DNA of 64,000 nucleotides from Musa acuminata AAA Group (taxonomy: Eukaryota > Streptophyta > Magnoliopsida > Zingiberales > Musaceae). Of this stretch, positions 3,915-49,301 are shown one piece after another (within the stretch, counting starts at the first letter, position 1; every line of letters starts with the position of its first letter). Below the pieces are notes generated by a model. The model searched no databases, had not been told where the DNA came from, and saw nothing but the letters and a program-made list of their open reading frames with translations. The stretch spans positions 26,949,501 to 27,013,500 of the forward strand of contig NC_088345.1 in assembly GCF_036884655.1 (NCBI RefSeq), given 5' to 3'. Position numbers and translations under genes: made by a program.

Positions 3915-5335
3915 TGTTGAATCTCGGATTTTGATGATGAAGTCAATTGTCATTTGTTGATCTAATCTATATGTTGAGAAAAGTGTGCAGGATTAACTAC
4001 GATGGCAGTAAGATATGCAGCAGGTGTTGAGCCGGAGTTAAGACCAAGATCACGTTGGGAGTTCAAGAGTTCGTCGGAAGTCCGGACGATAGTCGGAAGT
4101 TCTGCGGGAACCATCCGAGAAGTCCAGGAGCTTGCCAAAGAAGCTCATTGAAACTCGCCAAGAAGATCATTGCGAAGTCCAGGAGCTTGCCGGGAGTCCG
4201 TCGGAGCATCGCCGAGGGTTCGTCGGATGTTCACCGGAAGCTCGTCGGAAGAAGCGATTGATGCATCGGAACATAGAATTGCAGTAATCATGTCGTAATA
4301 GTCGTAGTTAGAGTATATATGAAGTTAGGGTTGGGAGGTCATCCCACTAACTTAATTAGGGGCTAACTGGGCTCTTAACAGACCCAAATTGGGCCGAATA
4401 GAATAGCCTATTCGGACCTAGAATTCCTAGCCGGCGGTGGCACCGCCCAGGAGACTCGGTCTCCTAAGGATTCTGGGCGGTAGTACCGCCCCTATCAGGT
4501 ACCTGATCTTAGTCTTCGAGCACTGTCAGGTGGTAGTACCGCCTAGACTAAGCGATAGTACCGCTTAGTGACAGATGACAGGTGGTAGTACCACCCAGTA
4601 ATGGCAGTGGTACTGGTAGGACCCCGGAAATTCGAGAATGGACACTTTTAGGCTCCATTTTCAAACTCATTAGGGCCTATATAAACCCCACCCTTTCCTG
4701 CATGAAAGGGCAACGAAAACTTGACATTATCTTGAGTCTTTGAGGCCTTAAAAGTGTTGTAAAAGCTAGAGTTCTCCTCCTTCTTTCTTCTAAGTGTCCA
4801 GATCATTCAAGAGAGGTGTGAAACTTGTAAGGGTTGTCTCCTAAACCCGGCAAAAGGAGAAAAGCTATAAAAGGGTGGTTGGCCTTCGCCTATTGAAGGA
4901 AGGCCTCTAGTGGATGCCGGTGACCTTATTGGAGGAGGAAACCGATAGTGGATGTAGGTCACATTGATGAACCACTCTAAAATCTCAGTTTGTATTTAGT
5001 TTGAGCATCTTTCCTTTATAACAAACTATCTCTCCTCCTTATTGTGCTTTAAATACGTCTACATTCGCTTTGACGTAAAACATCTTCTGAGATCGGCTTA
5101 ATATGAAGACTTTATGAAATCTACGTTTTTGTGATTTACACTGTTGCAAATCACCTTAGTCTTCTCTTGCATTTTCACTTAAGACTTCAAGCTCAAATTC
5201 CTTCTGAAACGAATTGAGTTGAACTCATTCTCGTTGAATCGGCTTTAATCGAAAAAAGGGTTTTTGAAATCATAAAAGTTTTCCGCTGCACTAATTCACC
5301 CCCCTCCCCCTCTTACTGCACTCTTGATCCTAACA
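3915..5335 (+). repeat. SirD 5' LTR
   Basis: 1421 bp, from TGTTGAATCTCGG to CCTAACA. U3 carries palindromes of the form GGCGGTAGTACCGCC and variants (about 4430-4620), followed by a TATA box TATATAAA at 4678-4685. U5 ends in a hairpin-forming GCACTAA...TTAC/TTAG segment around a C-rich run, with an A-to-C style change in this copy. Small ORFs inside are non-coding. Confidence 0.88.
4430..4686 (+). promoter_or_regulatory. U3 palindrome cluster and TATA box of the SirD LTR
   Basis: Several copies of a near-perfect palindrome with core GGTAGTACC (for example GGCGGTAGTACCGCC: 7-bp arms around one base) precede TATATAAA at 4678-4685. The spacing and the recurrence in other LTRs suggest a promoter-proximal binding-site cluster. 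That function is inferred. Confidence 0.6.
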
Positions 5336-5349
5336 ATTGGTATCAGAGC
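5336..5349 (+). other. Primer-binding site (tRNA-iMet type)
   Basis: ATTGGTATCAGAGC follows the LTR terminus directly. It matches the usual plant copia primer site complementary to the 3' end of initiator tRNA-Met. Confidence 0.9.
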
Positions 5350-5385
5350 AAGGATCACTCTCAGTTGGCTTAAAACCCAAGAGAG

Positions 5386-6940
5386 ATGACATTTGCTAAT
5401 AACCAAGAGGGTCACTCAATTACGCTTTTGCCCATGTTCAATGGGACGAATTACACCTATTAAAAGACTCGAATAAGGATCTTCCTTATTTCTATAGATT
5501 TTGAGCTTTGAAATATTATAGAAAATAGATTTCAAAAGTCTTCTCTTCCAATGATCGATTGGAACGAATTAGAGAAGAAAACTTTCGCTCTAAATGCAAA
5601 GGCTATGAATGCCTTATTTTGTGCATTAGATCAAAATGAGTTCAATCGTGTTTCGATTTGTTAAACTGCTTTTGATATTTGGCACACACTTGAAGTGACT
5701 CACGAAGACACGAGTAGAGTGAAAGAGTAAAAAATAAACCTTTTAGTACATTCTTATGAATGATTTCGAATGAAACCGAGTGAGACCATAGGAGACATGT
5801 ACACCCGTTTTACGGATGTTGTCAATGGTTTGAAAGGATTCGGTAAAGGTTTTTCGGATTTCGAGCTCGTTAATAAAGTTTTAAGATTCCTTCCAAAGAG
5901 TTGGGACCCTAAAATCATGGCCATTCAAGAGGCCAAAGATTTAAATAACTTTCCTCTTGAAGAATTAATTAGGTCACTAATGACCTACGAAATGACATGC
6001 AAAGTTCATGAAGAGCATAAGGACACCCTTCCAAAGAACAGGAAGGATATGACACTTAGAACACAAGAAGACTACTTGAGAGAAAACTCAAGTGATGAGG
6101 ACTTTGACGATGACTTGGCACTTTTAACAAGGAAATTCAAAAAATTCATTAAAAGAAACAAATTTAAAAATGACACTAAAAATAAATTTGAACTAAAAAA
6201 GGATCAAGCAATTTGTTATGAATTTAAGAAGTCGGGACACTACAAAAGTGAATGTCCCCAAGCCAAGAAGAGGACATCAAAGAAGAAGGTGCTCAAAGAA
6301 ATATGCGATGACTCAAGTGCATCCGAAGAAGAGGAGCCTAACACCGAGCAAATTGCTTATTATGCACTGATGGCCATTGGAGAGGAGGTATCAAATTCAA
6401 TTGATGTAAATTTATCATTTGGTGAATAATTAAATGTTTTTTATGATTTATTTGATGAATATAAAATAATTAGCAGAAAATATAAATTATTAAAAAAGAG
6501 CATGAATCTCTTGTTAGTAATTTTGATAAATTAAAAATTGAGCATAATGATAGCTTAGCTCTATATAGGAAATGCCATGATTTAGAAATAATTGAAAAGG
6601 AGAACTTGCTGCTCAAGGATACCTTGAAGAAATTTGAGGTTGGTAGCAAGTCCTTCAACATGATCCTTACCAATAAGGGTCACGTTCATAAAAAAAGTGG
6701 AATTGGATTTGTGAGAAGCTCTCACCAAAATCCAACCACTTTCATTAAAGGCCCTATCTTGCATTATTCATACCAAAACAAATACAACTTTTGTTGCAAA
6801 CATGGACATAGAGCTTATCATTGTCCATTCAAGAAAGTTAATCCAAACAAATTGATTTGGGTTCCTAAAGGAACCATAAAGAACTCCATGCGATATGATA
6901 AGCAATTTAGATCAGTTTTTGAGGCACCCAAGGTCAATTA
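5386..6940 (+). pseudogene. Decayed copia (Sirevirus-type) gag of SirD
   Basis: Gag would form the particle and bind element RNA. The frame from ATG 5386 aligns with the intact gag at 38697-39707 (minus), with shared stretches such as NAKAMNALFCALD and the LEEL...SLMTYEM block. In-frame stops occur at 5461, 5662, 5728 and 5761, and again at 6427; the reading frame shifts near 6500 and resumes in 6606-6940. A zinc-knuckle-like stretch CYEFKKSGHYKSEC (about 6218-6259) has Phe in place of the second Cys. A second CCHC-like motif lies near 6785-6830 (FCCKHGHRAYHC) and lacks its first Cys. An acidic Ser/Glu-rich patch lies between them. The start was chosen because it lies 36 bp after the primer site, in the same leader context as related copies. 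The gene is clearly dead. Confidence 0.88.
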
Positions 6941-7851
6941 GGTACCTAAAAATTATCCTCTTTTTTAGAAATATATACCATCACAAGCTAGAAGCAAGAT
7001 ATGATATCTTGCTTTTTTGATGCTCAAGGTTTATGACTAGAGATCAAAAATGACTCATATAACGCTCTCTAAGCTAAAATGACAAAAAGAGCATCAGTAG
7101 AATTAAAACTATCAATTACAAAATGATACTTATATTCCATATGTTAATGATGGAATCTTGTAAAACACTTAAGTTTGATCCCTCAAAATTTTGAAACTTG
7201 TAAACTCTTATGCATAAATTTTCTTTTACATATCCTTCAGATTTCTGAATTTATCGGATACATTCTGCCCTCAATTCTTCCGAATCAAACTATATCTTAC
7301 AAGATCATGAACTTATAGCTCGCGATGCTTGCATGATGAGTCATAAACATATTGAAAACATATAAGCTCTATATGACATTTGAGTAGAGTATGTATTTCA
7401 CAAGATCGATCATAAACATACGAATTTTCTCATCTTATGATGTGAATCTTTACATGATTATGTAATTAGGGTTGTGTGCTCCACAAACAAATACTCCCTT
7501 CAAATTGAAATCACCCACATCAACCCACACAACCCTATAAGTAGTGCTCACTGCCTGTAGGCAGTGGCAACGCCTAATTCGTGGTAGAACTATCAACTGT
7601 CATGGGTGGCAAGCGGTTGCACTCCCCAGCCAGCGACCCCAACTCTTTTTCCACTCCCCCTTGCAGCTCTAAACTCTCCTTCAACTCCATTCTCTCTCTC
7701 TAGCTGCCCAAAACTCTCTATTTCCTACAAGATCAAGGATCAATCCTACATCTTCTTGGAGATCTCAGCTAAGGTATTCTTTAAAAGGCCTTGAATTTTC
7801 TTTTGTATCATATAATCTTGCTCATTATTTATCTTCATAATAGTAGTATTT
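6941..7851 (+). other. Non-coding spacer and putative leader of the accessory ORF
   Basis: No pol is present. 6941-7500 is AT-rich and aligns with the minus-strand copy across 57219-57001 and then 25943 downward, which is how the GypF insertion point was confirmed. From about 7530 the character changes: a CTATAAGTA box, GC-richer segments including GCGGTTGCA (about 7611-7620), a CT-rich tract (7640-7710), then AAGGTATTC (about 7770), a possible 5' splice donor also present in the 20956-58067 copy, about 80 bp before the ATG at 7852. Confidence 0.5.
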
Positions 7852-8019
7852 ATGGGTTTTAGAAGATCCTTTAGAGACAAAGGGAAGAGGAGATTAGAAA
7901 AAAACTATGATTCCACACTTTTTGATTCAAATCAACATGCCCTAAAATTTGCATCCATAGAATTTAGAAAAAGTGGACACAATTCCTTCGTGTCATGTTG
8001 TAAAACTATATTGTTGTAA
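7852..8019 (+). pseudogene. Accessory ORF remnant (plant transposon-protein-like), N-terminal piece
   Basis: A 55-codon frame starts MGFRRSFRDKGKRRL and continues to about STLFDS. It aligns with the start of the longer minus-strand ORF at 25324 (MGSRRSSRDKGKRRL). After about 40 residues the similarity ends and the frame closes. It lies downstream of gag and in the same sense, where pol would be expected. The basic N-terminus resembles proteins commonly annotated as putative plant transposon proteins next to plant retroelements; that name is from memory. No function is claimed. Confidence 0.6.
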
Positions 8020-9078
8020 ATTTTTTATGATATTCACTTTGATCGCAATGCCACTTACTTTGATAATCGCAAGTCTTTGATATGTTTAACTATTAGTATC
8101 TACGACTTGATGTATTATTTGGTGAGCATTTACGAAGTTAGGAATATTAATGTTGATTGAACTTCGTTTTCAGATTTTCATGATTCATTGATCACTTAAA
8201 TTTGGTGCTAAAAATTTTATACGAATTTGACATGATTGTGATTTGAGAAGTTTCAATCATACATTGGATTCTTAATCTTTGAGTACTACAAAGTACTAAT
8301 AATTTTGCTTCATAATTGTGATTGAAAAGCTATGACAAAACATTGTCCGAATGCATGAATTTGTTAAATTTTATTTTCGGACTTTGTTGATTCTTTGATC
8401 ACTCACATAAATTCGATGCTAAAAATTTTATGATATGAATTTGACATGATTGTATTACATGTTTACTTTAATGTTGGAAATTTTGTGCCTTGGTGCAAAA
8501 AGTTTCCAAGATGATGAGCATGTTATACCTTCATGATTGTGATTGGAAAGCTATGACAAAACATTGTCATAATAGATAATTTTGTTGTATTTCTCTTTCG
8601 GACTTAATGTATTTCTTGAATCCAGCTTACATGAGTCTATACCATATTAAATTTATTTCATGCTCCATCACTTAATGATACATGGAATTAATTGACAAAT
8701 GCATCTCTCATGGATTTATCTTTTGTGAATTTTGATTGAGAAATGGATTTGATGTAATGATTATTTCACATGAATTCTTTCTTGACGAAGGAAGAATTGT
8801 TTTTAAGATGAACACTTGCAAGGATTTAATTTCACATGTATATCTTGATCCTTGTGAAAAATAAAGCATGATTTAAATGAAACTATCTTATTGTTTTAAC
8901 TTCATTCAAAGTTGGTTCTCAATGGCTTTTCCTCCTTACTTTCCTTCTTTACGCAAAATTTTGATGATAAGTAAAAGGAAAGAAGTTAATGAATGATATC
9001 ATATTATGAATGCTTGAAAAATAATTGGTATGAATTTCTTTACAAGTTGAAAAATGACATGAATTTTTACCACACTTG
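8020..9078 (+). other. AT-rich SirD spacer with an internal ~210-220 bp duplication
   Basis: No gene seen. Two diverged copies of a ~210-bp block are recognisable: GCTAAAAATTTTAT with flanking GAATTTGACATGATTG near 8200 and again near 8415, and AAGCTATGACAAAACATTG near 8325 and 8545. 9074-9078 is the left ACTTG duplication of the solo LTR. Confidence 0.55.
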
Positions 9079-10893
9079 TGTTGAATTTTGTATTTTGATC
9101 ATGAAACCAATTGATAATTGTGTTTATGTTTTAATCTGTGTTTTGAGTGACGCAGGATGCTTCGATCATGATGAGACAATTAAAGCAGGAAAAATCATGT
9201 TGTGCCGGAGGAACATGTCAGAAGATTGGACGTCGGGTCGGTGGATCGGTCGACGTATCGACAGAAGGCTTCGGGTCGTGGACTCGGGCATCGGGCCAAG
9301 AAGAGCGGGTATTGCACCAAGGATATCGGAGTTGCGGAGTCAACTAGCCGCCAAAGAATCGAACGAAGCGTCGAGGGACCAATGACATGCCGGACAACTT
9401 GGTTAATTGCTTAGGAATAATTGTCTCGATTGAAGTTTTGTTTTACATGTGCAGGATTAACTATGATGGATGTAAGACATGCAGTAGGAGTTACGCCGGA
9501 GTCAAGACTATGATCACGTTGGGAGTTCGAGAGATCGACGGAAGTCCGAACGGTCATCGGAGGTTCTACAGGAACAAATCTGAGAAGTCCAAGAGCTTGC
9601 CAAAAGAAGCTCGTCGGAACTCGCCAAGTGTATCGTCGCAAGTCCAGGAGTTTGCCGGAAATCCATAGGAGCATCACCAAGGGTTCATCGGATGATCGAC
9701 GGAAGCTCACCGGAAGAAGCGATTGACGCACCGGAGCAAGCTGTAGTAAATGTCTTAAGAATTGTCGCAGTTATCATGTAGATTAAGTTAGGAATGGGAG
9801 GTGATCCCATTAACTTAATATGGGGGCAATTGGGCCCTTGACAGACCCAAATTGGGTCGAATGGATCAAGCCATTCGGACCAGAATTCCTACTAGGCGAT
9901 GGCACCGCCAGGGTCGGCAGTGGCACCGCCCAGGAGAGGGTCTCCTAGGAAAGCTGGGAGGTGCAACCGCCCCAGGCAGGCGGTGGCATCACCTGGGCTC
10001 AATCTCCGAGTGAGATTGGGCGGTGCAACCGCCCTTGTCAAGCAGTGGCACTGCCTAAAGGCTTAGTCTCCGAGCTCTACCAAGCGGTGCAACTGCCCTT
10101 GACAAGCGGTGGCACCGCCTAGAGGTTCAATCTCCGAGCTTTGCCAGGCGGTGCAACCGCTAGACCCTGGAATTCCGGGAGATGATAGTTTTGAGCTCGG
10201 AATTCAAACTGGTTTGGAGCCTATAAATACCCCTCCCATCCTTGGGTAAAATACACAAGCACAGAGAGATTAAAAGAGAGAAAACGCTGCTGCAATCTCT
10301 AGAATTTCCCTCCTCTAGCTTAAGTATTAGAATTCTATTTAAGAGAGGAGAGTGAGTGCTTGTAAGGGTTGTCTCCTAAACCCAGTAAAAGGAGAAGAGG
10401 GGTGTAAGAAGGAGATTGATCTTCGCCTAGTAAAGGAAGATCGTTAGTGGACGTCAGTGAACTCATTGGTGGAGGAAGCCAAAAGTGGATGTAGGTCAAG
10501 ATTGACCGAACCACTCTAAATCTCGGTTTGCATTTACTTTGAGCATTTTATTTTTACTGCAAACCTCCTCAATAGCTTACTGTCTTCTGCTCTTTTATGA
10601 ACTCACTTTCAAGTTAAGTTTTCGAAAACAGTTTTACGTCGGAAATCAGTTTTATCATACGAACATCATATTTCAGTTTGCGCTTACATTCCGATTTCTA
10701 TCTTAACTGCAAACTTCCTTCCTTACTTTACTTCAAATACATTTCCATAAGCTTTCAAAGTTATTATCTGCACGTAACGACTTTTACGTCGGAATCGGAT
10801 TTCAATGTACAAACGCAGTTTTAATCGTCGAAAGTTTTCCGTTGCACTAATTCACCCCCCCCCCCCCCCCTCTTAGTGCTCTTGATCCTAACA
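9079..10893 (+). mobile_element. Solo LTR of a Sirevirus-like element, TSD ACTTG
   Basis: 1815 bp from TGTTGAATTTTG to CCTAACA, with the identical 5-bp direct repeat ACTTG at 9074-9078 and 10894-10898. There is no internal region, as expected after recombination between the two LTRs of an element. It has a palindrome array (about 9895-10165), a TATA box TATAAATA at 10222-10229 and a 16-C run near its 3' end. On both sides of it the SirD internal sequence resumes. Confidence 0.9.
9895..10229 (+). promoter_or_regulatory. U3 palindrome array and TATA box of the solo LTR
   Basis: Variants of GGCGGTGCAACCGCC recur about every 20-50 bp, ending shortly before TATAAATA (10222-10229). The core here is GCA/TGC, not AGT as in the SirD LTR. 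Confidence 0.6.
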
Positions 10894-11345
10894 ACTTGCA
10901 TATATTGTTGAATCGTTCTACTTTTTGTTGATGACAAGGGGGGAGAAATATGTGGTAAATTGATGATAAATGTATGCAATTTTACATGTATTCAATTTTA
11001 CACTTGAAATGTTTGTATTATGATAAGATATCCAAAGCTTAATTTGAAATATTACAAATTGATATCTTGTCATAGAATGAATTGCCATGATTGTTATCCT
11101 TCATATTTGAAATATAAGACTTGAAAATGGATGTCATGCCTTGACATCATTTTCAAAATGTTACATCATGATAGGAATCATGATGGGTGTATTGATAAGT
11201 TTAAATGAACTTAACTTATCAATATGTCTCTTGAATTTAAAGGCTTTGAATTCAAGAATGAGTTTTCTCAAGTATGGCATATAGATAGGGGGAGTTAAGG
11301 TTAACTCTGTCATCAATTGGTTGTCATCATCAAAAAGGGGGAGAT
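10894..11345 (+). other. SirD 3' internal end with polypurine tract
   Basis: Non-coding. It contains polypurine-like runs near 10946 and 11287. The true tract AAAAAGGGGGAGAT occupies 11332-11345, next to the degenerate LTR start. Confidence 0.7.
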
Positions 11346-12101
11346 AGGTGAATCTTGGATTTTAATGATGATGTCAATTGTCATTTGTTGATCTAATTTA
11401 TATGTTGAGAAAAGTGTACAAGATTAACTACGATGGCAGTAAGACATGCAGCAGGTGTTGAGCCGAAGTCAAGACTAAGATCACGTTGGGAGTTCGAGAG
11501 TTCGTCGGAAGTCCGTACGTTCGTTGGAAGTTCTACGGGAACCATCCGAGAAGTCTAGGAGCTTGCTAAAGAAGCTTGTCAAAACTCACCAAGAAGATCG
11601 TCGTGAAGTCCAGGAGCTTGCCGAAGTCCATTGGAGCATCACCGAGGGTTCGTCGGATGTTCGCCGGAAGTACGTCGGAAGCTCATCGGAAGAAGCGATT
11701 GATGCACCGGAACACATAATTGCAATAATCATGTTATAATTTTTGTAGTTAGAGTATAGATTAAGTTAGGGTTGGGAGGTAATCCCACTAACTTAATTAG
11801 GGGCCAATTGGGCCCTTAACAGACCAAAATTGGGTCGAATGGAACAACCCATTCGAACCCAGAATTCCTGGCCGGCGGTGGAACCGCTAGGGCCGGCGGT
11901 GGCACTATCCAAGAGACTAGGTCTCCCAGGGATTCTAGGCGGTAGTACCACCCCTGTCAAGCGGTGGTACCGCCGGCATTTATTGCTACCAGCGGTGGTA
12001 CCACACCTATCAAGCAGTGGTACCGCCTGAGCTCGGTCTTCGAGTGCTATTAGGCGGTAGTACTGCCCAGACTGAGCAGTAGTACCACTCAGTGACAGAT
12101 G
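11346..12101 (+). repeat. SirD 3' LTR, truncated
   Basis: It matches the first ~750 bp of 3915-5335. The terminal TGTTGAATC has mutated to AGGTGAATC. It ends inside the palindrome array exactly where CopT copy 1 begins, after ...GTGACAGATG. The other half is not found downstream of CopT copy 1, so it was lost together with the end of that element. Confidence 0.85.
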
Positions 12102-20955: not shown

Positions 20956-22710
20956 TGTTAGGATCAAGAGCACTAAGAGGGGGGGGTGAATTAGTGCAGC
21001 GGAAAACCTTTTACGACTAAAATAAAAATTGCGTTCGTTCGATAAAAGTGATTTCGGTAAGAAAGCCGATTCGTAAATCACTTTAACTTTTGATAAAGTG
21101 AAATGCAGCAATGATATAAATGCAGTTTGTAGTTATGATTCAAATCAGATAGCAGGCGCAAACTAAAATATGATATTCGTACGAAGAAACTGATTTACGT
21201 CTAAATGATGATTCGTAAATCACTTGATTAAGTGAGATGCAGTTTAAGGAAGGATATAAAGGCAGTTTAACGTTATGATAGAAATCAAAATGTAAATGCA
21301 AACTGAAATATGATAATCATACGAAAAAGTTGATTTACGTCTAAACGCCGGTTCGGAAAGTGCAAAGCTTGAAACCCGATCGTATATGCGTAGAAAGCAG
21401 TAAGCTTTTGAGGAAGTTTGCAGTAAAGATAATATGCTCAAAGTAAATGCAAACCGAGATTTAGAGTTGTTCGGTCAATCTTGACCTACTCCACTTTTGG
21501 CTTCCTCCACCGACGAGGTCACCGACGTCAACTAGATGCCTTCTTTCAATAGGCGAAGGCTAACCACCATTTTACAGTTTCACTCCTTTTGAAGGGCTTA
21601 GGAGACAACCATTGCAGAATTTTCTCTCCTTTCTTTACAACTCAGAACTTGGAAGAAAAGAGGGAGAAGAACTTTTGGCCTTTACAATAATTTTGAGCTC
21701 TAAAAATCATAGAACAAGATCAGGATTTCGGTGTAAGTTCATGCCCTTTCAGTGCTGAATGGGTGGGGTATTTATAGGCCCCAACCCAGTTCAAATTTGG
21801 AGCTCAAAACTGTCAATTCCCGGAATTCCGGGATCAGGCAGTTGCACCTCCTGACTGAGGTGGTTGCACCGCCTGGCAGAGCTCGAAGATTGAGCCTATG
21901 GGCGGTGCTACCTCCTGTCAGGGGCGGTTGCACCTCCTGCCAGAGCTCGAAGACTGAGCTTAGGCGGTTGCACCGCCTGACTGAGGTGGTTGCACCTCCT
22001 GGCAGAGCTCGAAGACCGAGCTAAGGCGGTGCCACCTCTTGTCAAGGGAGGTTGCACCGCCCAGTCTCGCTCGGAGACTGAGCCCAGGCGGTGCCACCGC
22101 TTGGCTGGAGCGGTTGCACCTCCCAGTCTCGCTCAAAGTCTGAGCCCAAGCGGTGCAACCTCCTGCCTTAGGCGATTCAACCGCCAAGCAGAAATCAGGG
22201 TCCGAATGGGTTGATCCATTCGGCCCAATTTGGGTTTTTCAGGGGCCCAATTGCCCCATGATTAAGTTAATGGGATCACCTCCCATTTCCAACTTAATCA
22301 TTGTGCTAACTATGATATTCCCTAAGACATTTACTGCAACTTGCTCCGGTGCGTCAATTGCTTCTTCCGGCGAGTTTCCGGCGAACTTCCGTCGATCATC
22401 CGATGAACCCTCGGTGATGCTCCTGCGGACTTCCGGCAAACTCCTGGACTTGCGACGATCCACTTGGCGAGTTCCGACGAGCTTCTTTGGCAAGCTCTTG
22501 GACTTCTCGGATTTGTTCCCGTAGAACCTCCGACGACTGTCCGAACTTCCGTTGAACTCTCGAACTCCCAACGTGATCATTGTCTTGACTCCGGTGCAAC
22601 TCCTACTGCATGTCTTACTTTCATCGTAGTTAATCCTGCACACTTATCTCAACATACAGATTAGATAACAAATGACAATTGACTTCATCATCAAAATCCG
22701 AGATTCAACA
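20956..22710 (-). repeat. SirD-type 3' LTR (minus)
   Basis: 1755 bp; plus-strand ends are TGTTAGGATC and GATTCAACA. On the sense strand it has a palindrome array (about 22200 down to 21840) followed by a TATA box at about 21776-21769. An 8-bp G/C run near 20980 belongs to the terminal hairpin. The flank at 20951-20955 (TAGGT) is the candidate target duplication; its partner is not in the window. Confidence 0.88.
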
Positions 22711-24215
22711 ATCTCCCCCTTTTTGATGATGATAATCAATTGATAATGGAGTTAACCTTAACTCCCCCTGTCTATATACCATACTTGAGATAAGTCTTTC
22801 TTGAATTCAAAACCTTTGAATTCAAGAGACATATTGATAAGTTAAAATCATTTAAACTTATCAATACTCCCATCATGATTTCCATCATGATATATCTCTC
22901 TGAAGATGATGTCAAGGCTTGACATTCATTTTCATTACAAGTTTGAATGATGGTAATAGTAGCAATTCATCATATTGTAAGATATCAACATGTGAAACTA
23001 CGAAGTAAGATTTTGATATCATTACATGATGCACACATTTCAAATGTTTTAGCAATTATTGCATTTCATCACACGGTAAGATATCAATATGTAAAATTAC
23101 GAAGCAAGTTTTTTATTTGATATCTTGACACGATACAAGGCATAATACAAATCATAGCATCTATTCATATATCTCTTGGTGATGCAAGCATGGCATTAAT
23201 ACTCATATATTTCTCCTCCTTTGTCATCAACAAAAAGCATGGTAATTGTGATACCAGGAGGACAATATAAGCAAATTTTGAGCATAAGTGCGATAATTGT
23301 CCATGCATTTACTCGGTTCATGTTATTTTCCAATAGTAAGTGATAGGAAATCAATTATACAAGCATATAAAGGAAAGCATGATACGTAGATTGCTTTGAA
23401 TACTTCTTCCTTTTTATTTGTTATAATCTTTTTGCATGAAGGAGAAAAGCCATTTGTGATACCAGCTATTTGTGAGTTTACTTTGAGTCAAGATATGTGT
23501 GTGAAACACTATCATCCATATTTCAAGATGGAATTAATAAGCAGGAATCATTTCATCAAATCCATTTCAGAAAAATATTTTTCATATAAGTGTATGAGAA
23601 AATCCGATTTTTAGGATACCAATTGTTAAGCGAATCCGAAAATGAAATGAACACTTTCATGCATTCGGACAAGACTATGCTACAGATTTTCAAATACAAT
23701 CATGAAGACAAAACATGCTTATTGTTATGGAAATTTTTGTATTCAACACATAATTTCCAACATGTTATTTAGGCATGTAATGGCAATCAAGTGATTTAAT
23801 CATTCAATTAAGTCCGAAAAATAATTTTAACTAATTCATGTATTTGGATGCATCAAATTCCTGATTCTCTTCTTATGAAATCAAATTGTTCTTCACTTAG
23901 AGGTTTTGTAAAAATGTCGGCTAATTGATGTTTAGTGTTATGACAATAATAATATCATGGCAATGTCATGACTCATCAACTGCATTGGTATATCATTTTC
24001 TCAAATTATATTTATCATGGAAATCAAGGCACAAGGTTTTCAAAACATTTAGTTTCAATGTAAAATCCGAGATAAACAATGAGAGATGTTTGTAACTCTA
24101 CATATGCTCACAAATAAATATACCAGGTAACCATATCAAGGATCAAGGCAAAGGCCATCATGGTGAGTAACATAAGGAGTTTATAATAACAATAGGTGAT
24201 TGTGTTCATACAAGC
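22711..24215 (-). other. SirD internal spacer with polypurine tract
   Basis: 22711-22725 is the polypurine tract (ATCTCCCCCTTTTTG on plus). Another polypurine-like tract is near 22761. The rest is AT-rich with no credible ORF; parts resemble the SirA spacer (for example near 23530-23660 and 38215-38340). Confidence 0.7.
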
Positions 24216-25324
24216 TCATTCATGAGGTGGAAAATTAAAGTGCCTAAATAAAGAGTCAAATTGTCGATGAATTTTCTGCAGCTCAGATAGGATTTGATCT
24301 TGTCGATGTTCAAGCCGTTCTTGTCTTTGTTCAAATCGGTCCATTCGAATCCCAATATCTTCGACAGATGATGTATGAGTTTGCTCAAATGGACGTGTTT
24401 CCTCAAAGGGACAGATCAGAGGAGATTGAGTACCCCTAAAGACTGGTGTTTCTGGTTCTGGTTCAAGTTGAGGGGGATCGGTTCTTCTAGGCATTCTAAC
24501 CCAGTTACCGTTTCTATAAACACATCTTAATCGGTGAAGTAGATTTTTATTTATTATGCTAAACCTATCTACTTTTATTACTTCTTCTTCCGGTGGTATT
24601 AGAATATCGTAGGCTTTCAGTATTCTAGTGATTATACCACCATATGGAAGCATCATATCTTTCTTAGATAGTTCTAACATGGTTTGTTGGATAAGATAAC
24701 CAAGACAGATGTCATGTCCTTTCATGATCAAATACATAGTTCCTAATTCTAATTGGCTTACTTCATCATGATGGTATTATTTAGGGAGAATGATGCTAGT
24801 TAGGATATGATGAAGTACCTTAGTGTTTAGAGGCAGTAGATGTTCACAACTTTAGGAACAAATGCTAAGTTGGGATTGGCGAAAATTGTTCCTAAGGCTT
24901 CAACATATGTTGTTCCAACAGTTTCATCATCCCATGATCCTCTAAAGTAAAGTCCTCTACTTTTTATGGGAATACATATCATGTCGCAAATGAATTTATC
25001 CATAATGGAGATGTGTTGTCCTAAGAGATAGGTAGACATTCTTTCTTCTTTATCTACTTGTATGTTGTTGTAAAACAATCTAACAAGTCTTGGATAGATG
25101 ATTTCATTAATTTGTAAAATAAGGAGTAGATCTAAGTTTGCAAACCATTAGATTGTCTCTAAGTCTCTTAGTTCATTTAAATCTACATGTTTTCCCTTAT
25201 TGACACTCATAAGTTCGAAAGAGGAAAACTTTTCAGCATGATATTTTGAATCGAAAAGGGTAAGATCAAAATCTTCCACTAATCTCCTCTTCCCTTTGTC
25301 CCTTGAGGATCTTCTAGACCCCAT
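24216..25324 (-). pseudogene. SirD accessory ORF (plant transposon-protein-like), decayed
   Basis: It reads from ATG 25324 (MGSRRSSRDKGKRRLVEDFD) to a stop at 24216, interrupted by an in-frame stop about 58 codons in and by a frame change around 24740-24830. Readable parts are a basic N-terminus, a middle block with YLLGQHISIMDKFICDM and FRGSWDDE, a block with MLPYGGIITRILKAYDI, and a C-terminal Gln/Glu/Arg-rich segment (MDRFEQRQERLEHRQDQIL) with coiled-coil-like heptads. The MLPYG...ILKAYDI block resembles proteins often annotated in plants as putative plant transposon protein; this is from memory. It is in the same sense as gag and sits where pol or an env-like ORF would be. No catalytic motif is seen and its role is unknown. 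Confidence 0.65.
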
Positions 25325-25943: not shown

Positions 25944-26379
25944 TGTTAGAACCCTTACATATTCTAAACTTGGGGTTGATCTCTTTAGGGGATCGGCCTC
26001 CTTGGAACTCTATAGGGGTTCCTCCCTCCAAGTTGCTGCTCAAAGGCTTCAGAAAAGATTCATCTATTGCTTATGAAAAGAGGTGGATTACATGACTATT
26101 TATAGGGCTTCTAAACCCTAACTCCTAATAGGACTCTTACTTAAGACTCCTACTTCTAACTAACTCCTAATCGGACTTCTACTCAAGACTCCTACTTCTA
26201 ACCAACTCCTAATAGGACTCCTACTCAAGACTCCTATTCCTTTAGAACTCCTTATTCTTCTCTAAGAAATAACCTCCTAACCCTAGCCGGCCACTTCACC
26301 TCTTTAATAGGGGTCGGCTTAGGTAGGTTTTACATGAATGTCCCTCTCAATTAGGACTCTCCTAGCTAGAGTCCTAACA
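25944..26379 (-). repeat. GypF 3' LTR
   Basis: 436 bp, plus-strand ends TGTTAGAACCC and AGTCCTAACA. Sense-strand TATA box (CTATAAATAG) at about 26104-26095. It includes a short tandem array of ACTCCTAATAGGACTC-type units (about 26120-26225). A polypurine tract (GAAGAGGGCGGGTT on minus) follows at 26380-26393. Confidence 0.88.
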
Positions 26380-26399
26380 AACCCGCCCTCTTCAAATCA

Positions 26400-27466
26400 G
26401 CCTTGTTCTCGAGGCTGACGATTCATGAATTTTGGGAATTTGATCTTCAAGTCATCATAGTTCACCCAAGTGGCATCTTCTGTTGGTAAGTTCACCCACT
26501 ATATTAGCACTTTAGTAGTGGGTCGTCATCATCGAGTCACGATCCGTCGATCAATAATGACACTTGGCTGGGTCTGGAGTTCTCCTTGGATAGTCATATT
26601 TGGTGGGTGGCTTTGGGCTGTCTCCAAGCACCTATTTACAACTTTTGTCTGGCCATTGATTTGTAGGTGATATGCCATACTCCTTTTCAATTTAGTACCC
26701 TGCATATGGAATAACTTTATCCAAAATCTGCTCGTGAAGATGCAAGTAGAATTTATCATAAGCACAATGCGTCCCTTATAGTGTAATTCTTTGGAGTCCC
26801 AATTGTAATGAGCCACGAAGCTTAGTGCTTCCTCCAATTTTTTTCTAATCTTACTAGTCTCTGAATCTTCCTACCATTCCATCTTAATATCTTCAAGGAA
26901 GTCGCTGGTCGGAAGTGAAACGACCGAAACTTCAGCTTGCTCGGGTAGCCATTTTTGCTGCTCAGGGGATGATATCTTTCGCTCCAAAAAGTAATTGAGG
27001 CTTTTATGGTCAATTTTAATTTGAAATTGTCGACCAATCAAGTAGGGTCTCCACCTCGTTGCTGCGCGCACAATGGCGAGCATCTCCTTATCATATGTTG
27101 ATTATTTTGATGGGAGGGAGATAATGCCTTGCTAGTGTATGCGAGTGGTTGACCATCTTGCATGAGAATGACACTAATTCTGACTCCAAATGCGTCGACC
27201 TCAATAATGAAGGGTCGGTTGAAATCTGGTAGTGCTAGCCCCGGCGTCGGCGTCATGGCTACCTTAAGTTTGTTGAAGGCAGCGGAGGCTCTGTCCGACC
27301 ATTGAAAGACATCTTTTTTCAGTAAGGAAGTAAGTGGTGCACTGACCTTTCCATAGTTTTTCATGAACTTGCGGTAGTAGCCTGTTAAACCCAGAAATCC
27401 ATGCAGCAATTTTATGTTCCTCGGGGTTGGCCAGTTCTACATTGCTTCTATTTTGGAGGGGTCCAC
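26400..27466 (-). pseudogene. GypF pol fragment: RT end, RNase H, integrase remnants
   Basis: On the minus strand, 27409-27038 reads FLGLTGYYRKFMKNYG, PLTSLLKK and QDGQPLAYTSKAL, the end of gypsy RT and start of RNase H. 27083-26871 continues RNase H (IKIDHKSLNYFLERK). 26837-26529 holds a damaged integrase core with MAYHLQINGQTKVVNRCLE, matching the SAYHPQTDGQTEVVNR motif of gypsy integrases. Frames change several times and large parts are missing (upstream RT, most of integrase). The RT side ends abruptly at 27466, where the LTR of G begins. Confidence 0.85.
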
Positions 27467-27948
27467 TGTTAGGATCAAGAGCACTAAGAGGGGGGGGGGT
27501 GAATTAGTGCAGTAGAAATCTTTCACTATTAAAATCGAAAGCTGCATTCGTTTGATAAAAACGATTTCGATGTAAAAGCCGATTCTAAGATTACTTTAAC
27601 TTAAGATTAAGCGAGATGACGTTAAAGTAAATCTATGAAGGCAGTTTGTAGTTTATGATGAAAATCAGAATGCAAGTGCAAACTGAAATGCGACGTTCGT
27701 ACGATAAAACCAGTTTACGTCTAAATGTCGATTTTGAAGATACTGAACTTTGAGATATGTTTTATAAATGCGCAAAAGGCAGTTTGCAGTTATGATTGAA
27801 ATCAAAACGTAAACGTAAATTGAAATGTAATGATCGTACGAAAAAACCGATTTACGTCTAAACGCTGATTCATAAAGTAAATGCTTGAAACCCGATCGTA
27901 AAAGCGCAGAAGGCAGTAAGCTTCAGAGGAGGTTTGCCGTAAAGATAA
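27467..27948 (-). repeat. Element G LTR, part 1 (U5 side)
   Basis: It contains the terminal hairpin with a G/C run (about 27490-27500). It ends at GATAA (27944-27948), the left duplication of CopT copy 2, and continues at 44882. Confidence 0.88.
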
Positions 27949-29293
27949 TGTTGGGAAATCATGGGGGGCGACATCATATGCGCAGCGGAAGAACAAGAAA
28001 ACAAAAATCCCCGATTCCCAAAAAGATGTTCGTCGTCGTGCGAAGATTGGTGCGCAAAAAATCCGCAAAACACAAAACTATGTATAGAGATTGTGTTACC
28101 TAGGGAGATCGTATATCCCTGTTTCCTTGCAAGCAAAGACTCTAGCCTATGAGGCTGTGAATCCCTTCTATTTATAGAGATCCCGTGTCAAACCCTAATG
28201 GGTCCTTCCCTAGTGGGTATTGGATCTGCATCCAATAAGACAAGGACTCCGTTGGATATCTCATATCCGAAACTCTACTCATCGCAATGCCTACCATATG
28301 TGTGTGACCCTCTAGGCCCAATATCGAGCTGGCCGTGAGTCATACCTATCAGAACTCCTTCTAACCCAGTGAATTATTATCTCTGTAATAATTCACTCGA
28401 CTCATCGACTACGGACGTACTAGGCCACTACGCCGTAGTCCCCAGATGATACAGGGGAATCCAATCCATTGGACCTGTCTGTCCTCAGTTACCATGTACC
28501 TATAGTCCCTCATCCATCTAATATCCCAAAGACCGTATATCGAGCATAGTGTTGTCAGACCCATACGGTTTCTACTCGAGTCTCGCTCTAATCGGATTCT
28601 CCCGGAGAACTCTTTCTCTCTCAACCCGATTGACCCTGGCCAGGGATTTGTCTGAGCAAGAACACATGAGATATTCCTCTCATGATGCCGAGAGTGGATG
28701 ATCCTCTATCGACACTCAATAGCCCTCGTAAGGTCGACTACCACTCCCAATGACCAGCTGTACTAGATCTGGGATAGCCAAACCTATAAGTCTGGTATCA
28801 AAGAGTGGAGGACTCATACAGGACATCCTTGGTGTCTTAAGTCTAAGGACTAGATACACCACTAGGACTACGGAATCGCTGTCTGACAATAAGGCATCAT
28901 CGACCATCCAGCATTCCGTAAGCGGATCAATCAGTGAACTCATTCTCCAATGAGCACCTGTACTGTATCCCTAGTGTCCCTACACGAGCAGCTATGAGAC
29001 CAGCTGCATCCATCATATGAACGGGTATACAGCACATCAGTCTATCCGGTTATCACAATGTCCCTCTCGAGTAACCTATGACTGGGATTATTTAGGATAT
29101 GTGTTTAAAGTTGAACTGATCTCATTACGATCCGATTCCCATTGCACAAATCCAAGGACATCACAATATATATATGCATTTATGCAATAGTTATAAAGTG
29201 ATATATGCCAAAATATAATAAGCAAAAAGATTCTGTATCAAGTCACACGTGCCATCACTCACATGATTGGCTTGCTGGGCACCTATGACTAGT
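27949..29293 (-). repeat. CopT copy 2 3' LTR with internal deletion
   Basis: 1345 bp against 1492 bp for its partner. About 148 bp are missing near 28131, between short GCAAG repeats (compare 43563-43710), which suggests a deletion between micro-repeats. The first base pair of the LTR is TA instead of TG on the sense strand. Confidence 0.9.
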
Positions 29294-29304
29294 AATCTCC
29301 CACT
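29294..29304 (-). other. Polypurine tract of CopT copy 2
   Basis: ATCTCCCACTT on plus, i.e. AAGTGGGAGAT on the sense strand, next to the 3' LTR. Confidence 0.85.
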
Positions 29305-29308
29305 TGAC

Positions 29309-32300
29309 CTAAAGCCAATCACCTATATGTCTGATCCCCATCAGACTCCTGTGATGCTCAAAGACAATCTGAGACAACGGCTTTGTCAGTGGATCTGCAA
29401 TGTTATCTTCGGATGGAACTCTTTCCACTGCTACATCTCCTCGGGTTACGATCTCTCTGATAAGCTGGAACCTCCTCAGAACACTTCTGATAAGACTCGG
29501 GTTCCCTTATTTGAGTAATCGCCCCATAGTTGTCGCAATATAAGGAAGTTGACTTCTCGCTATTCGGAATGACTCCCAAATCTGTGATGAACATCTTCAC
29601 CCAGACTCCCTCCTTTGCTGCATCTGATGCAGCAATGTACTCCGCCTCTGTGGTCGAGTCAGTAGTGGTATCTTGCTTGGAACTCTTCCAGCACACTGCT
29701 CCTCTATTCAAGGTGTACACATACCCTGAATTCGACTTGCTATCATCGACATCAGACTGAAAACTTGAGTCAGTGTAGCCTTCAACCTTAAGGCTATTAC
29801 CTCCATATACTAGTAAAAGATCCTTAGTCCTTCTCAAGTACTTAAGGATACACTTTACTGCTTTCTAGTGCTCCAAGCTTGGATCCGCCTGATACCTGCT
29901 CGTGACACTCAGAGAATGCGCTATATCAGGCCTAGTACATAGCATGGCATACATGATAGACCCTATTGCTGAGGCATAAGGTATCATATCCATGTTCGCC
30001 CTTTCTTCTGGAGTCTTTGGGGACATACTCGTAGAAAGCGATATCCCATGTCTCCTCGGTATGAGACCTCTCTTGGAATTTTCCATGCCAAACCTTTTTG
30101 ACAATAGTTTCTATGTACCTGGACTGGGACAAGCCAAGCATCCTCTTGGATCTATCTCTATAGATTCTAATCCCCAAGATATAGGATGCTTCCCCTAAGT
30201 CCTTTATGGAGAAGTGTCTAGATAACCAAGTCTTTACTGTAGATAGCATTCCTACATCATTCCCAATGATGAGGATGTCATCCACATATAACACCAAAAA
30301 GGTGATAGCGCTCCCACTTACCTTTCTGTACACACAAGGCTCATCTTCGTTCTTAACGAAGTCATAAGATCTGATTGCCTCATCAAATTTTATGTTCTAA
30401 CTTCGGGAAGCTTGCTTTAGTCCATAAATGGATCTAAGCAACCTACACACCTTATCTGGGCAGTTCTTAGACAGAATCCCTCAGGTTGCATCATATACAC
30501 CTCCTCCTCGAGGTTCCCGTTGAGGAATGCGGTTTTCACATCCATCTGCCAGATCTCATAATCATAGTGTGCTGCAATAGCCAATAGAATTCTGATGGAT
30601 TTTAGCATTGCTATGGGTGAGAAGGTTTCGTCGTAGTCAACACCTTGCCTTTGACGATACCCTTTAGCCACTAGCCTTGCTTTATAGGTCTTTACCTTTT
30701 CATCTACTCCGATCTTTTTCTTAAAGATCCATTTGCAATCGATGGGTATAATACCTTCGGGCGCATCAACTAGGTTCCAAACCTTATTGGAGTACATAGA
30801 ATCTATCTCAGAATTCATGGCTTCTTGCCATTTCCCGGAGTCTATACTCATAATAGCCTCCTCGTAGGTCTGAGGATCAATATCCTCTACATCCTTTGCT
30901 CTAATATGTCCCACATATCTCTTAGGAGGATGGGATACTCTATCAGACCTGCGTAAAGTTGAAACTTGTGTATTAGGTACCTGAACAGACTCGGGCTGTA
31001 GAGTGGTGCTTGAGCTTGGTTCTCCAACCTCGCTCAACTCTATCATTCTCCCACTGTCTCCGCCAAGAATGTGTTCCTTCTCAAGGAACACTACTCTATA
31101 AGCTACAAAGACCTTTTGGTCCTCGAGATGATAGAAATAATACTCACAAGTTTCCTTGGGGTGTCCCACAAATTTGCATCGCTCTGTCCTTGATTCTAAC
31201 TTATCGGGGTTGTGTCTTTTAATGTGGGTAGGGTAGCCCCAAATCTTAACAACCTTAAGATCAGGCTTCTTCCCTTTCCATATCTCATATGGTGTAGACA
31301 CTACCGACTTAGTTGGAACTCTATTCAGAAGGTAAGCTGCGGTTTCTAGGGCATATCCCCAGAATGAGATGGGTAGGTCAGCGAAACTCATCATGGACCG
31401 TACCATATCTAATAATGTATGATTTCTCCTTTCAGAGACACCATTGAGCTGAGGTGTATAAGGAGGTGTCCATTGGGATAATATCCCATGGTCCTTGAGG
31501 AACTGAGTAAACTTTGTACTTAAGTATTCACCTCCTCGATCTGATCGAAGAGTTTTGATACTCTTTCTAGTCTGGTTCTCCACCTCATTCTTATACTCTC
31601 TGAATTTCTCAAAGGCCTTGACTTGTACTTCATTAAGTACACATATCCATACCTTGAGAAATCATCAGTAAATGTAATGAAGTAGGAGTAACCTCCAATG
31701 GCATGAGTTGACATGGGTCCACATACATCACTATGTATGAGTTCCAACAACTCATTGGCTCTCTCTCCAGTTCTACTAAATGGAGATTTGGTCAGTTTTC
31801 CACGAATGCAAGGTTCACAAGTTGCATATGACATATAGTCGAATGGATCTTGATATCCATCATTTAGCAACTTTTGAATCCTTCTTTCATGGATGTGACC
31901 TAGCCTACAATGCCACAGGTATGCACTGTTCAACTCATCTCGTTTCCTTCTTGACACATTTACATTCATGATATGTGGAGTGGTGTCTAACATAAATAAA
32001 CCATTATGCAATGTTCCTTTCGTGATGATCTTATCATCTAATAATATCGAACAACTATTGTTCTCAAAAACAAATTTATATCCACTAACTGTTAAACATG
32101 AAATGGAGATAATGTTTTTGATAATAGAAGGAACAAAATAACATGCATCTAATGCAATAAAAGCTCAATTAGGCAGATGTAGGGCGACCTCGCCAACAGC
32201 TAATATAGCAACTTTTGCTCCATTACCCATCTTGAGGTCCATCTCGCCTCTCTCTAGTCTCCTAGGCCTTGCCAGAACCTGCAACGAATTACATATATGA

Positions 32301-33193
32301 TAAGCACTACCGGTATCCAATACCCATATGTTATTATAAGAGTCTGACAAATGGAGACTGATCATGAATGTACCTGAAGCTTCATCAAGCTTTTGTTTCG
32401 CCCTTTCTGCAAGGTACTCTTTGCAGTTTCTCTTCCAATGCCCATATTTACCACAGTAGAAGCACTAGCCTTTGTCCTTTGCTGGGTCTTTCTTAGCAAC
32501 CTTTGCTTTACCTTGTTTGCCCTTGCCCTTTCCCTTCTTAAGGGACCTTTCTGCTTTCCTTTTCTTTCTGGTCTCACCAGTGTAGAGAACTGGCTTCTCT
32601 TTCTTAATAGTACTCTCTGCCTCCCTCAACATATTGAGGAGCTTTGGGAGAGTCACCTCAAGCTTGTTCATATTAAAATTCATTATGAACTGTGAAAAGG
32701 AATCTGGTAGGGACTGAAGCATAATGTCCACACACAAGTTGTCCTCTAGGACCATTCCTAGACTTGTGAGTTTCTCTATCCACTCAATCATCTTTAGGAC
32801 ATGGTTCTGAACCGGTGTCCCCTCAGTCATCCTAGCGCGAAAAAGGCTCTTGGATATTTCATATCGTTGAGTCCTTCCCTGTTCCTCAAATAATTTGCGG
32901 ATATGTAGGAGAATGGATCTGGCATCCATCTTTTCATGTTGTCTCTGTAACTCTGGAGTCATAGAGCCCAACATATAGCACTGAGCAAGAGTGGAGTCAT
33001 CAATGTACTTCACGTAGCGAGTGATCTCATCCTCGCTTGCCCCTTCTTCGGGCGTAGGCATCACTGTATCAAGGATGTACACGATTTTCTCCGCTGTGAG
33101 AACAATTCTCAAGTTACGGAGCCAATCCGTATAATTTGGACCAGTGAGGCGGTTGACATCAAGTATGCCACGTAAGGGATTTGAAAGCGACAT
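29309..33193 (-). pseudogene. CopT copy 2 gag-pol, multiply disrupted
   Basis: It starts at ATG 33193 ([12 protein letters not shown]). Gag is open to an in-frame TAG at 32465; directly after it the zinc knuckle is intact (CFYCGKYGHWKRNC). The protease motif [10 protein letters not shown] is present. Damage then includes a TGA at 32165, a one-base loss near 31612 inside the integrase, a frame shift near 30473 in RT, a TAG near 30397, an extra A near 30092, a TAG at 29865, and the RNase H frameshift shared with copy 1 (near 29480). Unlike copy 1, the integrase zinc-binding region is complete (CEPCIRGK), the core reads RSDRGGEY, and the 17212-type deletion is absent. RT motifs QMDVKTAFLNG and LYVDDILI are visible. 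It ends at a TAG at 29309-29311. Confidence 0.9.
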
Positions 33194-33680
33194 TTTCTGA
33201 AAATAAAGATGTAGCAGAAATGAATAACATGCAGATTTTGCAAGAAATAAACTATCAAGATATGGACTTCTATCTTAATATGCTCCCACTATTTTACTAA
33301 CGAGTCACGCGACACCCTTAGCACGTGAAACGGAAGTCTCCGGCAGACTTCTAGTGGGGATCAGGATCCAATCAGCATCTTAGTGTAACCTCGAGGGACT
33401 CGACTAATCACACTAAGCCTAAAAGGTAGGCAACTCTTGCCGATCATAACTCCTTGTGATTCCCGTCCTGTTCGGCCTCTGAATCACCATGGCCTCGAGG
33501 GACTCGACCAACCATGATGCTCGGTTAAGTCAACACCTTCGTTACAAGATGAGTCTGATTTGATGATATACCCTCGAGGGACTCGACCAAGTATACCATG
33601 CCCTCATGTCACCGGTGACATCTCTATGTCGTAAGCAAGATAGCGAATCGCGATATAGGTGAGTCTCGAGGGACTCAACC
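33194..33680 (-). other. CopT copy 2 leader, part next to gag
   Basis: Non-coding. It carries the CTCGAGGGACTCGACC palindromic motif at about 33389, 33493, 33581 and 33664. The last is the site where SirA inserted. CAACC at 33676-33680 is the left target duplication of SirA. Confidence 0.75.
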
Positions 33681-33814
33681 TGTTAGGATCGAGAGCACTA
33701 AGAGGGGGGGGGGGTGAATTAGTGCAGCGGAAATCTTACAGCGATTTTTAAAAACGAAAGCTGCGTTCGTCCGATAAAAAATGATTTCGATATAAAAGCA
33801 GAATCACAGTGCAG

Positions 33815-34190
33815 TTTGCGTCTAAGCGCAGTTTTGCGTCTAAGCGCAGTTTGCGTCTAAACACAGTTTGCGTCTAAGCGCAGTTTGCGTCTAAGCACAG
33901 TTTGCGTCTAAGCGCAGTTTGCGTCTAAACTCAGTTTTACGTCCAAACGTAGTTTTACGTCTAAACGCAGTTTTACGTCTAAACGCAGTTTTGCGTCTAA
34001 ACGCAGTTTTACGTCTAAACGCAGTTTTGCGTCTAAACGCAGTTTTACGTCTAAACGCAGTTTTACGTCTAAACGTAGTTTTACGTCTAAATGCAGTTTT
34101 GCGTCTAAACGCAGTTTTACGTCTAAACGTAATTTTACGTCTAAATGTAGTTTTGCGTCTAAAAGCAGTTTTGAACCTTGAAAAGTGTTT
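33815..34190 (-). repeat. LTR minisatellite, ~17-18 bp unit
   Basis: About 20 copies of GTCTAAACGCAGTTTT(A/G)C or shorter variants. The upstream-most units lack TTT. It encodes a meaningless Arg-Leu-Asn-Ala-Val-Leu repeat in one frame. Copy number differs from the partner LTR (39885-40215). Confidence 0.9.
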
Positions 34191-39707: not shown

Positions 39708-39743
39708 TTCTCTCAGGTGTAAATCCGAAATGAGAAATACCCC

Positions 39744-49262: not shown

Positions 49263-49301
49263 CACATATGAAATGACGTGCAATGCACGTGAAGAACTTG
49301 G

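What the first reader, a model, noticed from the sequence alone, without database searches (positions are those of the whole stretch)
3915..12101. Gag plus an unrelated accessory ORF in place of pol (plus copy)
After gag the element has a spacer, then an ORF starting MGFRRSFRDKGKRRL in the same sense, then more spacer and the 3' LTR. No PR/IN/RT/RH trace is visible. The minus-strand element at 20956-58067 has the same order and a longer version of the ORF, so two independent copies share the layout. Non-autonomous gag-only elements are known; a family that replaced pol with a transposon-protein-like ORF would be unusual and may be undescribed.
Basis: partly seen in the sequence, partly recalled or inferred. 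Interest (0 to 1): 0.75.

Follow-up and report, generated by a model that had tools for sequence, protein, structure and literature searches.

The report
Banana retrotransposons with pol swapped out
In a banana-family genome, a large family of copy-and-paste elements carries a particle-coat gene and an envelope-like gene but has lost the enzymes it needs to copy itself, and both remaining genes look preserved by selection.

Summary
Element A (3915-12101) is Sirevirus-type (Ty1/copia SIRE lineage): LTR, PBS, gag, spacer, accessory ORF, PPT, truncated 3' LTR, plus a 1.8-kb solo LTR (9079-10893). A's ORF is only a 55-aa stump; the minus copy has a broken 368-codon version; two intact relatives pass Pfam PF20167. 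'No pol trace' is wrong: A keeps about 75 bp of protease start after gag, and the minus copy keeps an RNase H tail downstream of the ORF. In the host genome the layout is a family: gag and ORF lie within about 1 kb, without pol, in 17 of 20 A-like loci (one more split by an insertion, two undetermined) and in all 23 distinct young loci sampled. Of four young loci read at length, all have an intact ORF and three an intact gag; ORF dN/dS is 0.08-0.14. One pol-intact Sirevirus with a similar LTR was read downstream of RT; it lacks the ORF. Best reading: a pol-less Sirevirus lineage whose pol core is replaced by an envelope-like cassette, mobilised in trans. It is a new variant of known non-autonomous elements; selection on the ORF is its most interesting feature. 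Whether pol+ORF+ relatives exist here was not settled.

The parts
3915..5335 (+). 5' LTR of element A, 1421 bp, TG...CA, poly-C tract near its 3' end
5338..5349 (+). primer binding site TGGTATCAGAGC (tRNA-Met type; the type is recalled and fits PMC6317226 passages)
5386..6962 (+). gag of element A, copia type, interrupted by stops; 71% and 57% to the 521-aa gag P0042 in two pieces
   Evidence: PF14223; tblastn
6900..7047 (+). end of gag plus remnant of the protease start (about 75 bp), homologous to a pol-bearing Sirevirus in L023
7545..7640 (+). GC-rich repeat-box region upstream of the ORF
   Evidence: one match with up to 3 mismatches, at 7560, in A's spacer; four in B's
7852..8019 (+). accessory (envelope-like, PF20167-family) ORF, N-terminal stump of 55 aa; no Pfam hit on its own
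   Evidence: 57% over 47 aa to P0019
9079..10893 (+). solo LTR inserted into A's linker, TSD ACTTG
11336..11343 (+). polypurine tract AGGGGGAG, 10 bp before the 3' LTR; second copy at 11287
11346..12101 (+). truncated 3' LTR of A (84% to the 5' LTR over the main aligned piece of 612 bp)
57222..58067 (-). gag C-terminal part of minus copy B with zinc knuckle
   Evidence: PF00098 E 3.5e-06
25945..57000 (-). gypsy element (with further elements nested in it) inserted in B between gag and ORF
   Evidence: LTR repeats 25944-26243/56565-56864; ends
24219..25324 (-). accessory ORF of B, broken (stop near 25150, frame change near 24.87 kb); two pieces match PF20167 in order, each below the cut-off
23856..23945 (-). 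RNase H C-terminal remnant, downstream of the ORF
22713..22720 (-). PPT AGGGGGAG of B, 10 bp before the 3' LTR; second copy at 22769
20956..22710 (-). 3' LTR of B

Best explanation
A and B are dead members of a non-autonomous Sirevirus lineage that carries two genes, gag and an envelope-like PF20167 ORF, while the pol core (most of protease, integrase, reverse transcriptase and most of RNase H) is missing. The ORF, with its upstream repeat boxes, sits in the gap between a protease-start remnant (seen in A and A-types) and an RNase H tail (seen in B and young copies), so pol was replaced by this cassette, most likely through template switching between co-packaged Sirevirus RNAs (inferred). The element supplies its own Gag and ORF product. 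Reverse transcriptase, integrase and protease come in trans from pol-intact Sireviruses with similar LTRs and the same kind of PPT (inferred from shared cis-signals). Both ORFs evolved under purifying selection and the family expanded recently.
For: No RT or IN match between gag and ORF in 17 of 20 A-like loci and 4 of 4 young full-size loci; gap of 648-881 bp in 20 of 20 short loci, one a repeat of L030. The RT/IN probe was the window's Tork-like pol; it did detect Sirevirus pol in L023. Junction query: 2,119 first-look candidates, the best 40 scored, 40 of 40 full length at 99%. ORF query P0019: 10,612 first-look candidates, the best 111 scored, 94 without internal stop by my count of the table. 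Protease-start remnant in A and 8 of 8 A-type loci tested; RH-tail coding detected in B and L029 of 16 post-ORF stretches, with nucleotide homology from L053:412 or 437 in L029-L032. In L029 the ORF's 3' flank runs into the RH tail at TTGATTTC, a stretch present twice in B. Pol-intact relative L053: no PF20167 match, three PPTs, LTR 88.0% and 93.5% to L029 in its two main pieces. ORF dN/dS 0.08-0.14 among four young copies and 0.16-0.20 between these and four A-type loci (dS 0.82-1.03); gag 0.13-0.21 and 0.12-0.14.
Against: Only one pol-intact copy was read downstream of RT; pol+ORF+ elements were not excluded, and selection on the ORF could partly have acted in such an ancestor. In the gag tree the one pol-bearing sequence falls between A-types and the B/young group, so a single origin is not shown. 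No locus shows both edges: the RH tail was not detected in the 11 A-type stretches, and L029, L030 and B match the protease-bearing piece only up to about the gag end; B is linked to A through their mutual alignment and L029 to B through a 228-bp, 72% match. Trans-mobilisation is untested. Copy numbers are first-look candidates, not confirmed copies, and scored places are the best matches, not a random sample.
Confidence: 0.75

Rival explanations
1. Repeated simple deletion: an ordinary Sirevirus (gag-pol-ENV order) lost pol in many copies, leaving gag next to ENV.
For: Canonical Sireviruses place the ENV-like gene after pol, with repeat boxes upstream of it (PMC2829016 passages), and the boxes are here too. 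The protease remnant fits a 5' deletion edge. No RH tail was found after the ORF in 11 A-type stretches.
Against: The RNase H tail lies downstream, not upstream, of the ORF in B and L029; a young junction sequence recurs full length in 40 of 40 scored places, the best of 2,119 candidates; young copies have intact ORFs and near-identical LTR starts, so the pol-less form itself multiplied.
Confidence: 0.15
2. The ORF is a captured host or DNA-transposon gene unrelated to the Sirevirus envelope-like gene.
For: Pfam's name is 'Putative plant transposon protein'; PF20167 is also reported for a sunflower Athila (gypsy) ORF (PMC11728184 passages); no membrane-like segment (maximum 19-residue hydropathy 1.14).
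Against: In the 15 regions examined, repeat boxes occur only in LTRs and in the spacer upstream of the ORF, the pattern described for ENV-bearing Sireviruses. SIRE 3' ORFs are highly heterogeneous, so divergence is no objection (PMC6317226 passages). A long C-terminal helix appears in a low-confidence model.
Confidence: 0.2
3. The two window copies are degenerate junk and the shared order is a coincidence of nested insertions.
For: Both window copies are broken and the window is densely nested.
Against: Same layout in sampled loci across many contigs, with intact ORFs in young copies.
Confidence: 0.02

Closest known systems
Sirevirus (SIRE/Maximus) Ty1-copia elements with an ENV-like gene
   Same: long LTRs, tRNA-Met-type PBS, AGGGGGAG PPT 10 bp before the 3' LTR and in more than one copy, poly-C LTR-end signal, repeat boxes in LTRs and upstream of the extra ORF
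   Different: pol core absent; in B and L029 the extra ORF lies upstream of an RNase H tail rather than after pol
TR-GAG non-autonomous LTR retrotransposons
   Same: LTRs, gag (with at most protease), no RT/IN (definition seen in PMC6022998 passages)
   Different: TR-GAG is defined by GAG or GAG+AP only; here there is a second intact ORF with low dN/dS
SIRE eORF-3'F elements of REXdb (PMC6317226)
   Same: 74% of SIRE elements carry a forward 3' extra ORF (passages)
   Different: there it is described downstream of the polyprotein; none of the passages I saw describes pol-less copies
Gag-only Sirevirus-type element C in this window (42022-33681, minus)
   Same: related LTR (76% over a 491-bp piece to A's), PBS, gag, PPT, no pol match
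   Different: no PF20167 match and no repeat boxes in its post-gag internal region

Membership tests
Sirevirus | PBS complementary to tRNA-Met next to the 5' LTR | tested here: met
   TGGTATCAGAGC at 5338; a motif TGGTATCA(A/G)AGC 3 bp after the 5' LTR in 4 of 4 of L029-L032; the link to tRNA-Met is recalled and stated for most copia groups in PMC6317226 passages
Sirevirus | PPT AGGGGGAG 10 bp upstream of the 3' LTR, multiple copies | tested here: met
   A 11287/11336, B 22769/22720, three in each of L029-L032; the paper gives four per linker on average (PMC2829016 passages)
Sirevirus | poly-C integrase signal near the LTR 3' end | tested here: met
   CACCCCCC tract before CTTGATCCTAACA in the A and B LTRs
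Sirevirus | GC-rich repeat motif clusters in LTR and upstream of ENV | tested here: met
   up to 3 mismatches: A LTR 3, A spacer 1, B LTR 9, B spacer 4, L029 LTR 8, L029 spacer 2, C LTR 8; 0 in the eight other regions (A and L029 gag, L029 ORF, three post-ORF stretches, C internal, L053 linker); block-shuffled means 0-0.04
Sirevirus | copia gag with multiple CCHC knuckles | tested here: inconclusive
   PF14223 in A's gag and one CCHC in B's and in P0042 by Pfam; a second knuckle seen by eye only
Sirevirus | Sirevirus RT/INT phylogeny | not testable with these tools
   the element has no RT; the presumed partner's RT was not placed on a reference tree
Sirevirus ENV-like gene | homology to annotated ENV-like proteins | not tested
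   no annotated ENV set at hand; PF20167 hit E 1e-14 for P0019
Sirevirus ENV-like gene | transmembrane and coiled-coil segments (PMC3414828 passages) | tested here: inconclusive
   no membrane-like segment in P0019, P0020 or P0001 by hydropathy, which counts against; long C-terminal helix in a low-confidence model (mean pLDDT 42.9)
TR-GAG | only GAG, or GAG plus AP, between LTRs | tested here: not met
   a second intact 368-aa ORF in 4 of 4 young loci

The most novel reading that the evidence does not exclude
A long-lived two-gene parasite lineage: a Sirevirus that discarded its replication enzymes yet kept gag and the envelope-like gene under purifying selection, which would mean the envelope-like protein acts preferentially on its own RNA or particle and cannot be borrowed in trans the way pol can.
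Probability: 0.4. Interest if true: 0.78.

Novelty: new variant of a known kind. Interest (0 to 1): 0.6.

Why it matters
Whether the envelope-like ORFs of plant Sireviruses do anything is an open question (PMC2829016, PMC3414828 and PMC6317226 passages). An element that lost pol but kept this ORF intact separates the ORF's fate from pol's: if it were dispensable it should have decayed like pol. The family also gives a natural autonomous/non-autonomous pair in a crop family whose genomes are rich in Maximus/SIRE elements (PMC4059648 passages).

Tried and rejected
Structure prediction of the ORF protein gave mean pLDDT 42.9, so no fold search was run. A profile search of solved structures gave five matches at E 0.11-0.33, read as chance. 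A text search for an RNase H tail motif found no paper; I then tested the tail against the copia elements in the window (27 residues, 41%, E 0.013 and 0.035) and against the pol-intact Sirevirus (28 residues, 89%, E 1.2e-15). An early idea that L023's pol-bearing element shares the family LTR was dropped: the LTR ends directly in its gag without a PBS, so it looks like an inserted solo LTR. Simple deletion from a canonical ENV-bearing Sirevirus was my first reading and was set aside because the RH tail is downstream of the ORF in B and L029.

Not done: counting confirmed copies, a search for pol+ORF+ copies, and more pol+ loci.
Full report
What is in the window. The region is a nest of related plant LTR elements. 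Element A has its 5' LTR at 3915-5335, a tRNA-Met-type primer site at 5338, copia gag, a spacer, an ORF at 7852-8019, a polypurine tract at 11336 and a truncated 3' LTR at 11346-12101. Its linker holds a solo LTR, 9079-10893, with the duplication ACTTG. Minus copy B has the gag C-terminal part (58067-57222), a gypsy insertion (57000-25945), the ORF (25324-24219, broken), an RNase H tail (23945-23856), PPT and 3' LTR (22710-20956).

Host. The closest gag relatives that bear a name are from Musa textilis, and one relative of the ORF is a Musa acuminata var. zebrina gene model in which, by eye, gag-end-like residues are fused to ORF residues (P0022). The window lies in a 1.53-Gb assembly. I infer a Musaceae genome; the record is unnamed.

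The ORF. Two separate pieces of B's ORF hit PF20167 in order along the profile, each below the curated cut-off (E 0.0044 and 0.00064); A's 55-aa stump has no Pfam hit. Intact database relatives P0019 (368 aa) and P0020 (373 aa) pass the cut-off (E 1e-14 and 2.1e-14). The family name says 'putative plant transposon protein', and a sunflower study reports partial similarity of an Athila extra ORF to it (PMC11728184, passages only). In this element the ORF is preceded by GC-rich repeat boxes. Of 15 regions examined they occur only in the four LTRs and in the spacer upstream of the ORF (B 4, L029 2, A 1), not in gag, the ORF, post-ORF stretches, the post-gag region of gag-only element C, or the linker of a pol-intact relative. 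Such boxes in LTRs and upstream of ENV are described for ENV-bearing Sireviruses (PMC2829016, passages only). I therefore call the ORF envelope-like. Direct homology to annotated Sirevirus ENV proteins was not tested, and no membrane-like segment was found, although such segments are described for ENV-like proteins (PMC3414828 passages).

The layout is a family. Twenty 10-kb loci were taken, in rank order, from the 39 other scored hits to A's ORF start (40 scored of 1,355 first-look candidates). In 17 of 20 the end of gag lies about 0.9-1.0 kb upstream of the ORF with no RT or IN match between; L022 has the same spacer split by an insertion of about 6.4 kb without RT match; L011 and L016 could not be judged. 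Several of these loci are very alike and may be alleles or duplicates, so independent insertions are fewer. Four loci with P0019-like ORFs (first, second, fourth and fifth by score of 111) are near-complete copies: LTR of about 2 kb, PBS, gag of 527 codons open in three of four (in L031 the gag match is split), spacer of about 0.8 kb, ORF of 368 aa, three PPTs, start of the 3' LTR. Twenty further short loci that I picked from the same list across contigs, one a repeat of L030, show gag ending 648-881 bp before the ORF in 20 of 20. A 921-bp gag-to-ORF junction query had 2,119 first-look candidates; the best 40 were scored and 40 of 40 match over the full length at 99%. The ORF query had 10,612 first-look candidates; of the 111 scored, 94 have no internal stop. 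First-look numbers are not confirmed copy counts, and scored places are the best matches, not a random sample.

Where pol went. A's sequence aligns for 148 bp with a pol-bearing Sirevirus in L023, from the gag end through about 75 bp of protease start (score 142, maximum of 200 shuffles 34); 8 of 8 A-type loci tested align into the protease start too. B, L029 and L030 match that piece only up to about the gag end (82, 50 and 47 bp); B aligns with A through the remnant, and L029's spacer aligns with B's over 228 bp at 72%. On the 3' side, a pol-intact Sirevirus (L053, in a 1016-aa open frame) ends RNase H with KHQLADIFTKPLSEEQFDFIRRELGML, then has a 725-bp linker with three PPTs and the LTR, and no PF20167 match (best E 1.7). 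In B, 28 codons of that tail (89%), and in L029, 16 codons (94%), lie after the ORF, followed by linker homologous to L053's. L030-L032 show nucleotide homology from within the tail (L053:412 or 437) but no protein-level hit; 11 A-type stretches show no tail. In L029 the flank of the ORF runs into the tail at TTGATTTC, which occurs twice in B, as if a B-like arrangement lost the piece between. So the ORF occupies the place of pol, between a protease start and an RNase H tail; no single locus shows both edges clearly.

Selection and age. Between four young copies the ORF has dN/dS 0.08-0.14; between these and four A-type loci 0.16-0.20 at dS 0.82-1.03; among the A-type loci, which carry 3-5 stops each, 0.33-0.75, as expected for decayed copies. 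Gag gives 0.13-0.21 among three young copies, 0.12-0.14 between these and three A-type loci, and 0.27-0.28 among A-type loci (all). The starts of the two LTRs of the young copies differ by K2P 0.009-0.024 over 299-346 bp. The young pol-less LTR and L053's LTR are 88.0% and 93.5% identical in their two main pieces, closer than either is to A (77.5% and 78.9%), which suggests exchange or close partnership with the pol-intact family.

How it works (inference). Gag and the ORF product are made by the element; protease, RT, RNase H and integrase come from pol-intact Sireviruses, whose RT query had 43,785 first-look candidates (150 scored). Shown: layout, intact ORFs, shared cis-signals, constraint. 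Inferred: mobilisation in trans, template switching, function of the ORF. Not shown: a single origin. In a gag-end tree of 22 sequences the one pol-bearing sequence sits between A-types and the B/young group.

Literature. Non-autonomous gag-only elements (TR-GAG) are known and defined as GAG or GAG+AP only (PMC6022998, passages); in oil palm 105 of 191 unassigned elements had GAG alone or GAG plus protease (PMC4608283, passages). SIRE elements with a 3' extra ORF are common (PMC6317226, passages). The listings of searches in the held open-access library showed no paper that I recognised as describing a pol-less Sirevirus with gag plus the envelope-like ORF; I saw listings and passages, not whole texts, and most subscription journals are not covered.

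Noticed in passing
33681-42022 (minus): Complete gag-only Sirevirus-type element C: LTRs 95% identical, 5-bp duplication GGTTG on both sides, no PF20167 or pol match; element E (about 49290-54837, plus) is 95% identical to it over 3 kb of internal sequence.
   Followed up: partly
1069-3465: Two LTR copies face each other as an inverted pair (for example 1223-1627 against 2908-3312, 97%), directly upstream of element A.
   Followed up: no
1-902 and 51286-52187: 1-300 and 51286-51585 are 100% identical; the neighbouring 333-902 and 51618-52187 are each 98% to the same stretch of element C, suggesting recent copies or duplication.
   Followed up: no
about 12102-19512 and 44879-28454: Two copies of another copia element (about 95-97% alike in the compared pieces); one begins where A's 3' LTR breaks off and the other hosts element C.
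   Followed up: partly
33864-34325 and 39955-40362: 18-bp-period repeats inside the LTRs of element C.
   Followed up: no
L023 6473-7414 (as fetched): In the pol-bearing Sirevirus, gag appears to end in a stop with protease following in the same frame, and many pol frames elsewhere are 1013-1016 aa long, hinting that gag and pol are separated by a stop in this lineage.
   Followed up: no
P0022 (Musa acuminata var. zebrina protein): A public gene model appears to fuse the end of gag to part of the accessory ORF, hinting that the same pol-less order exists in another Musa genome.
   Followed up: no
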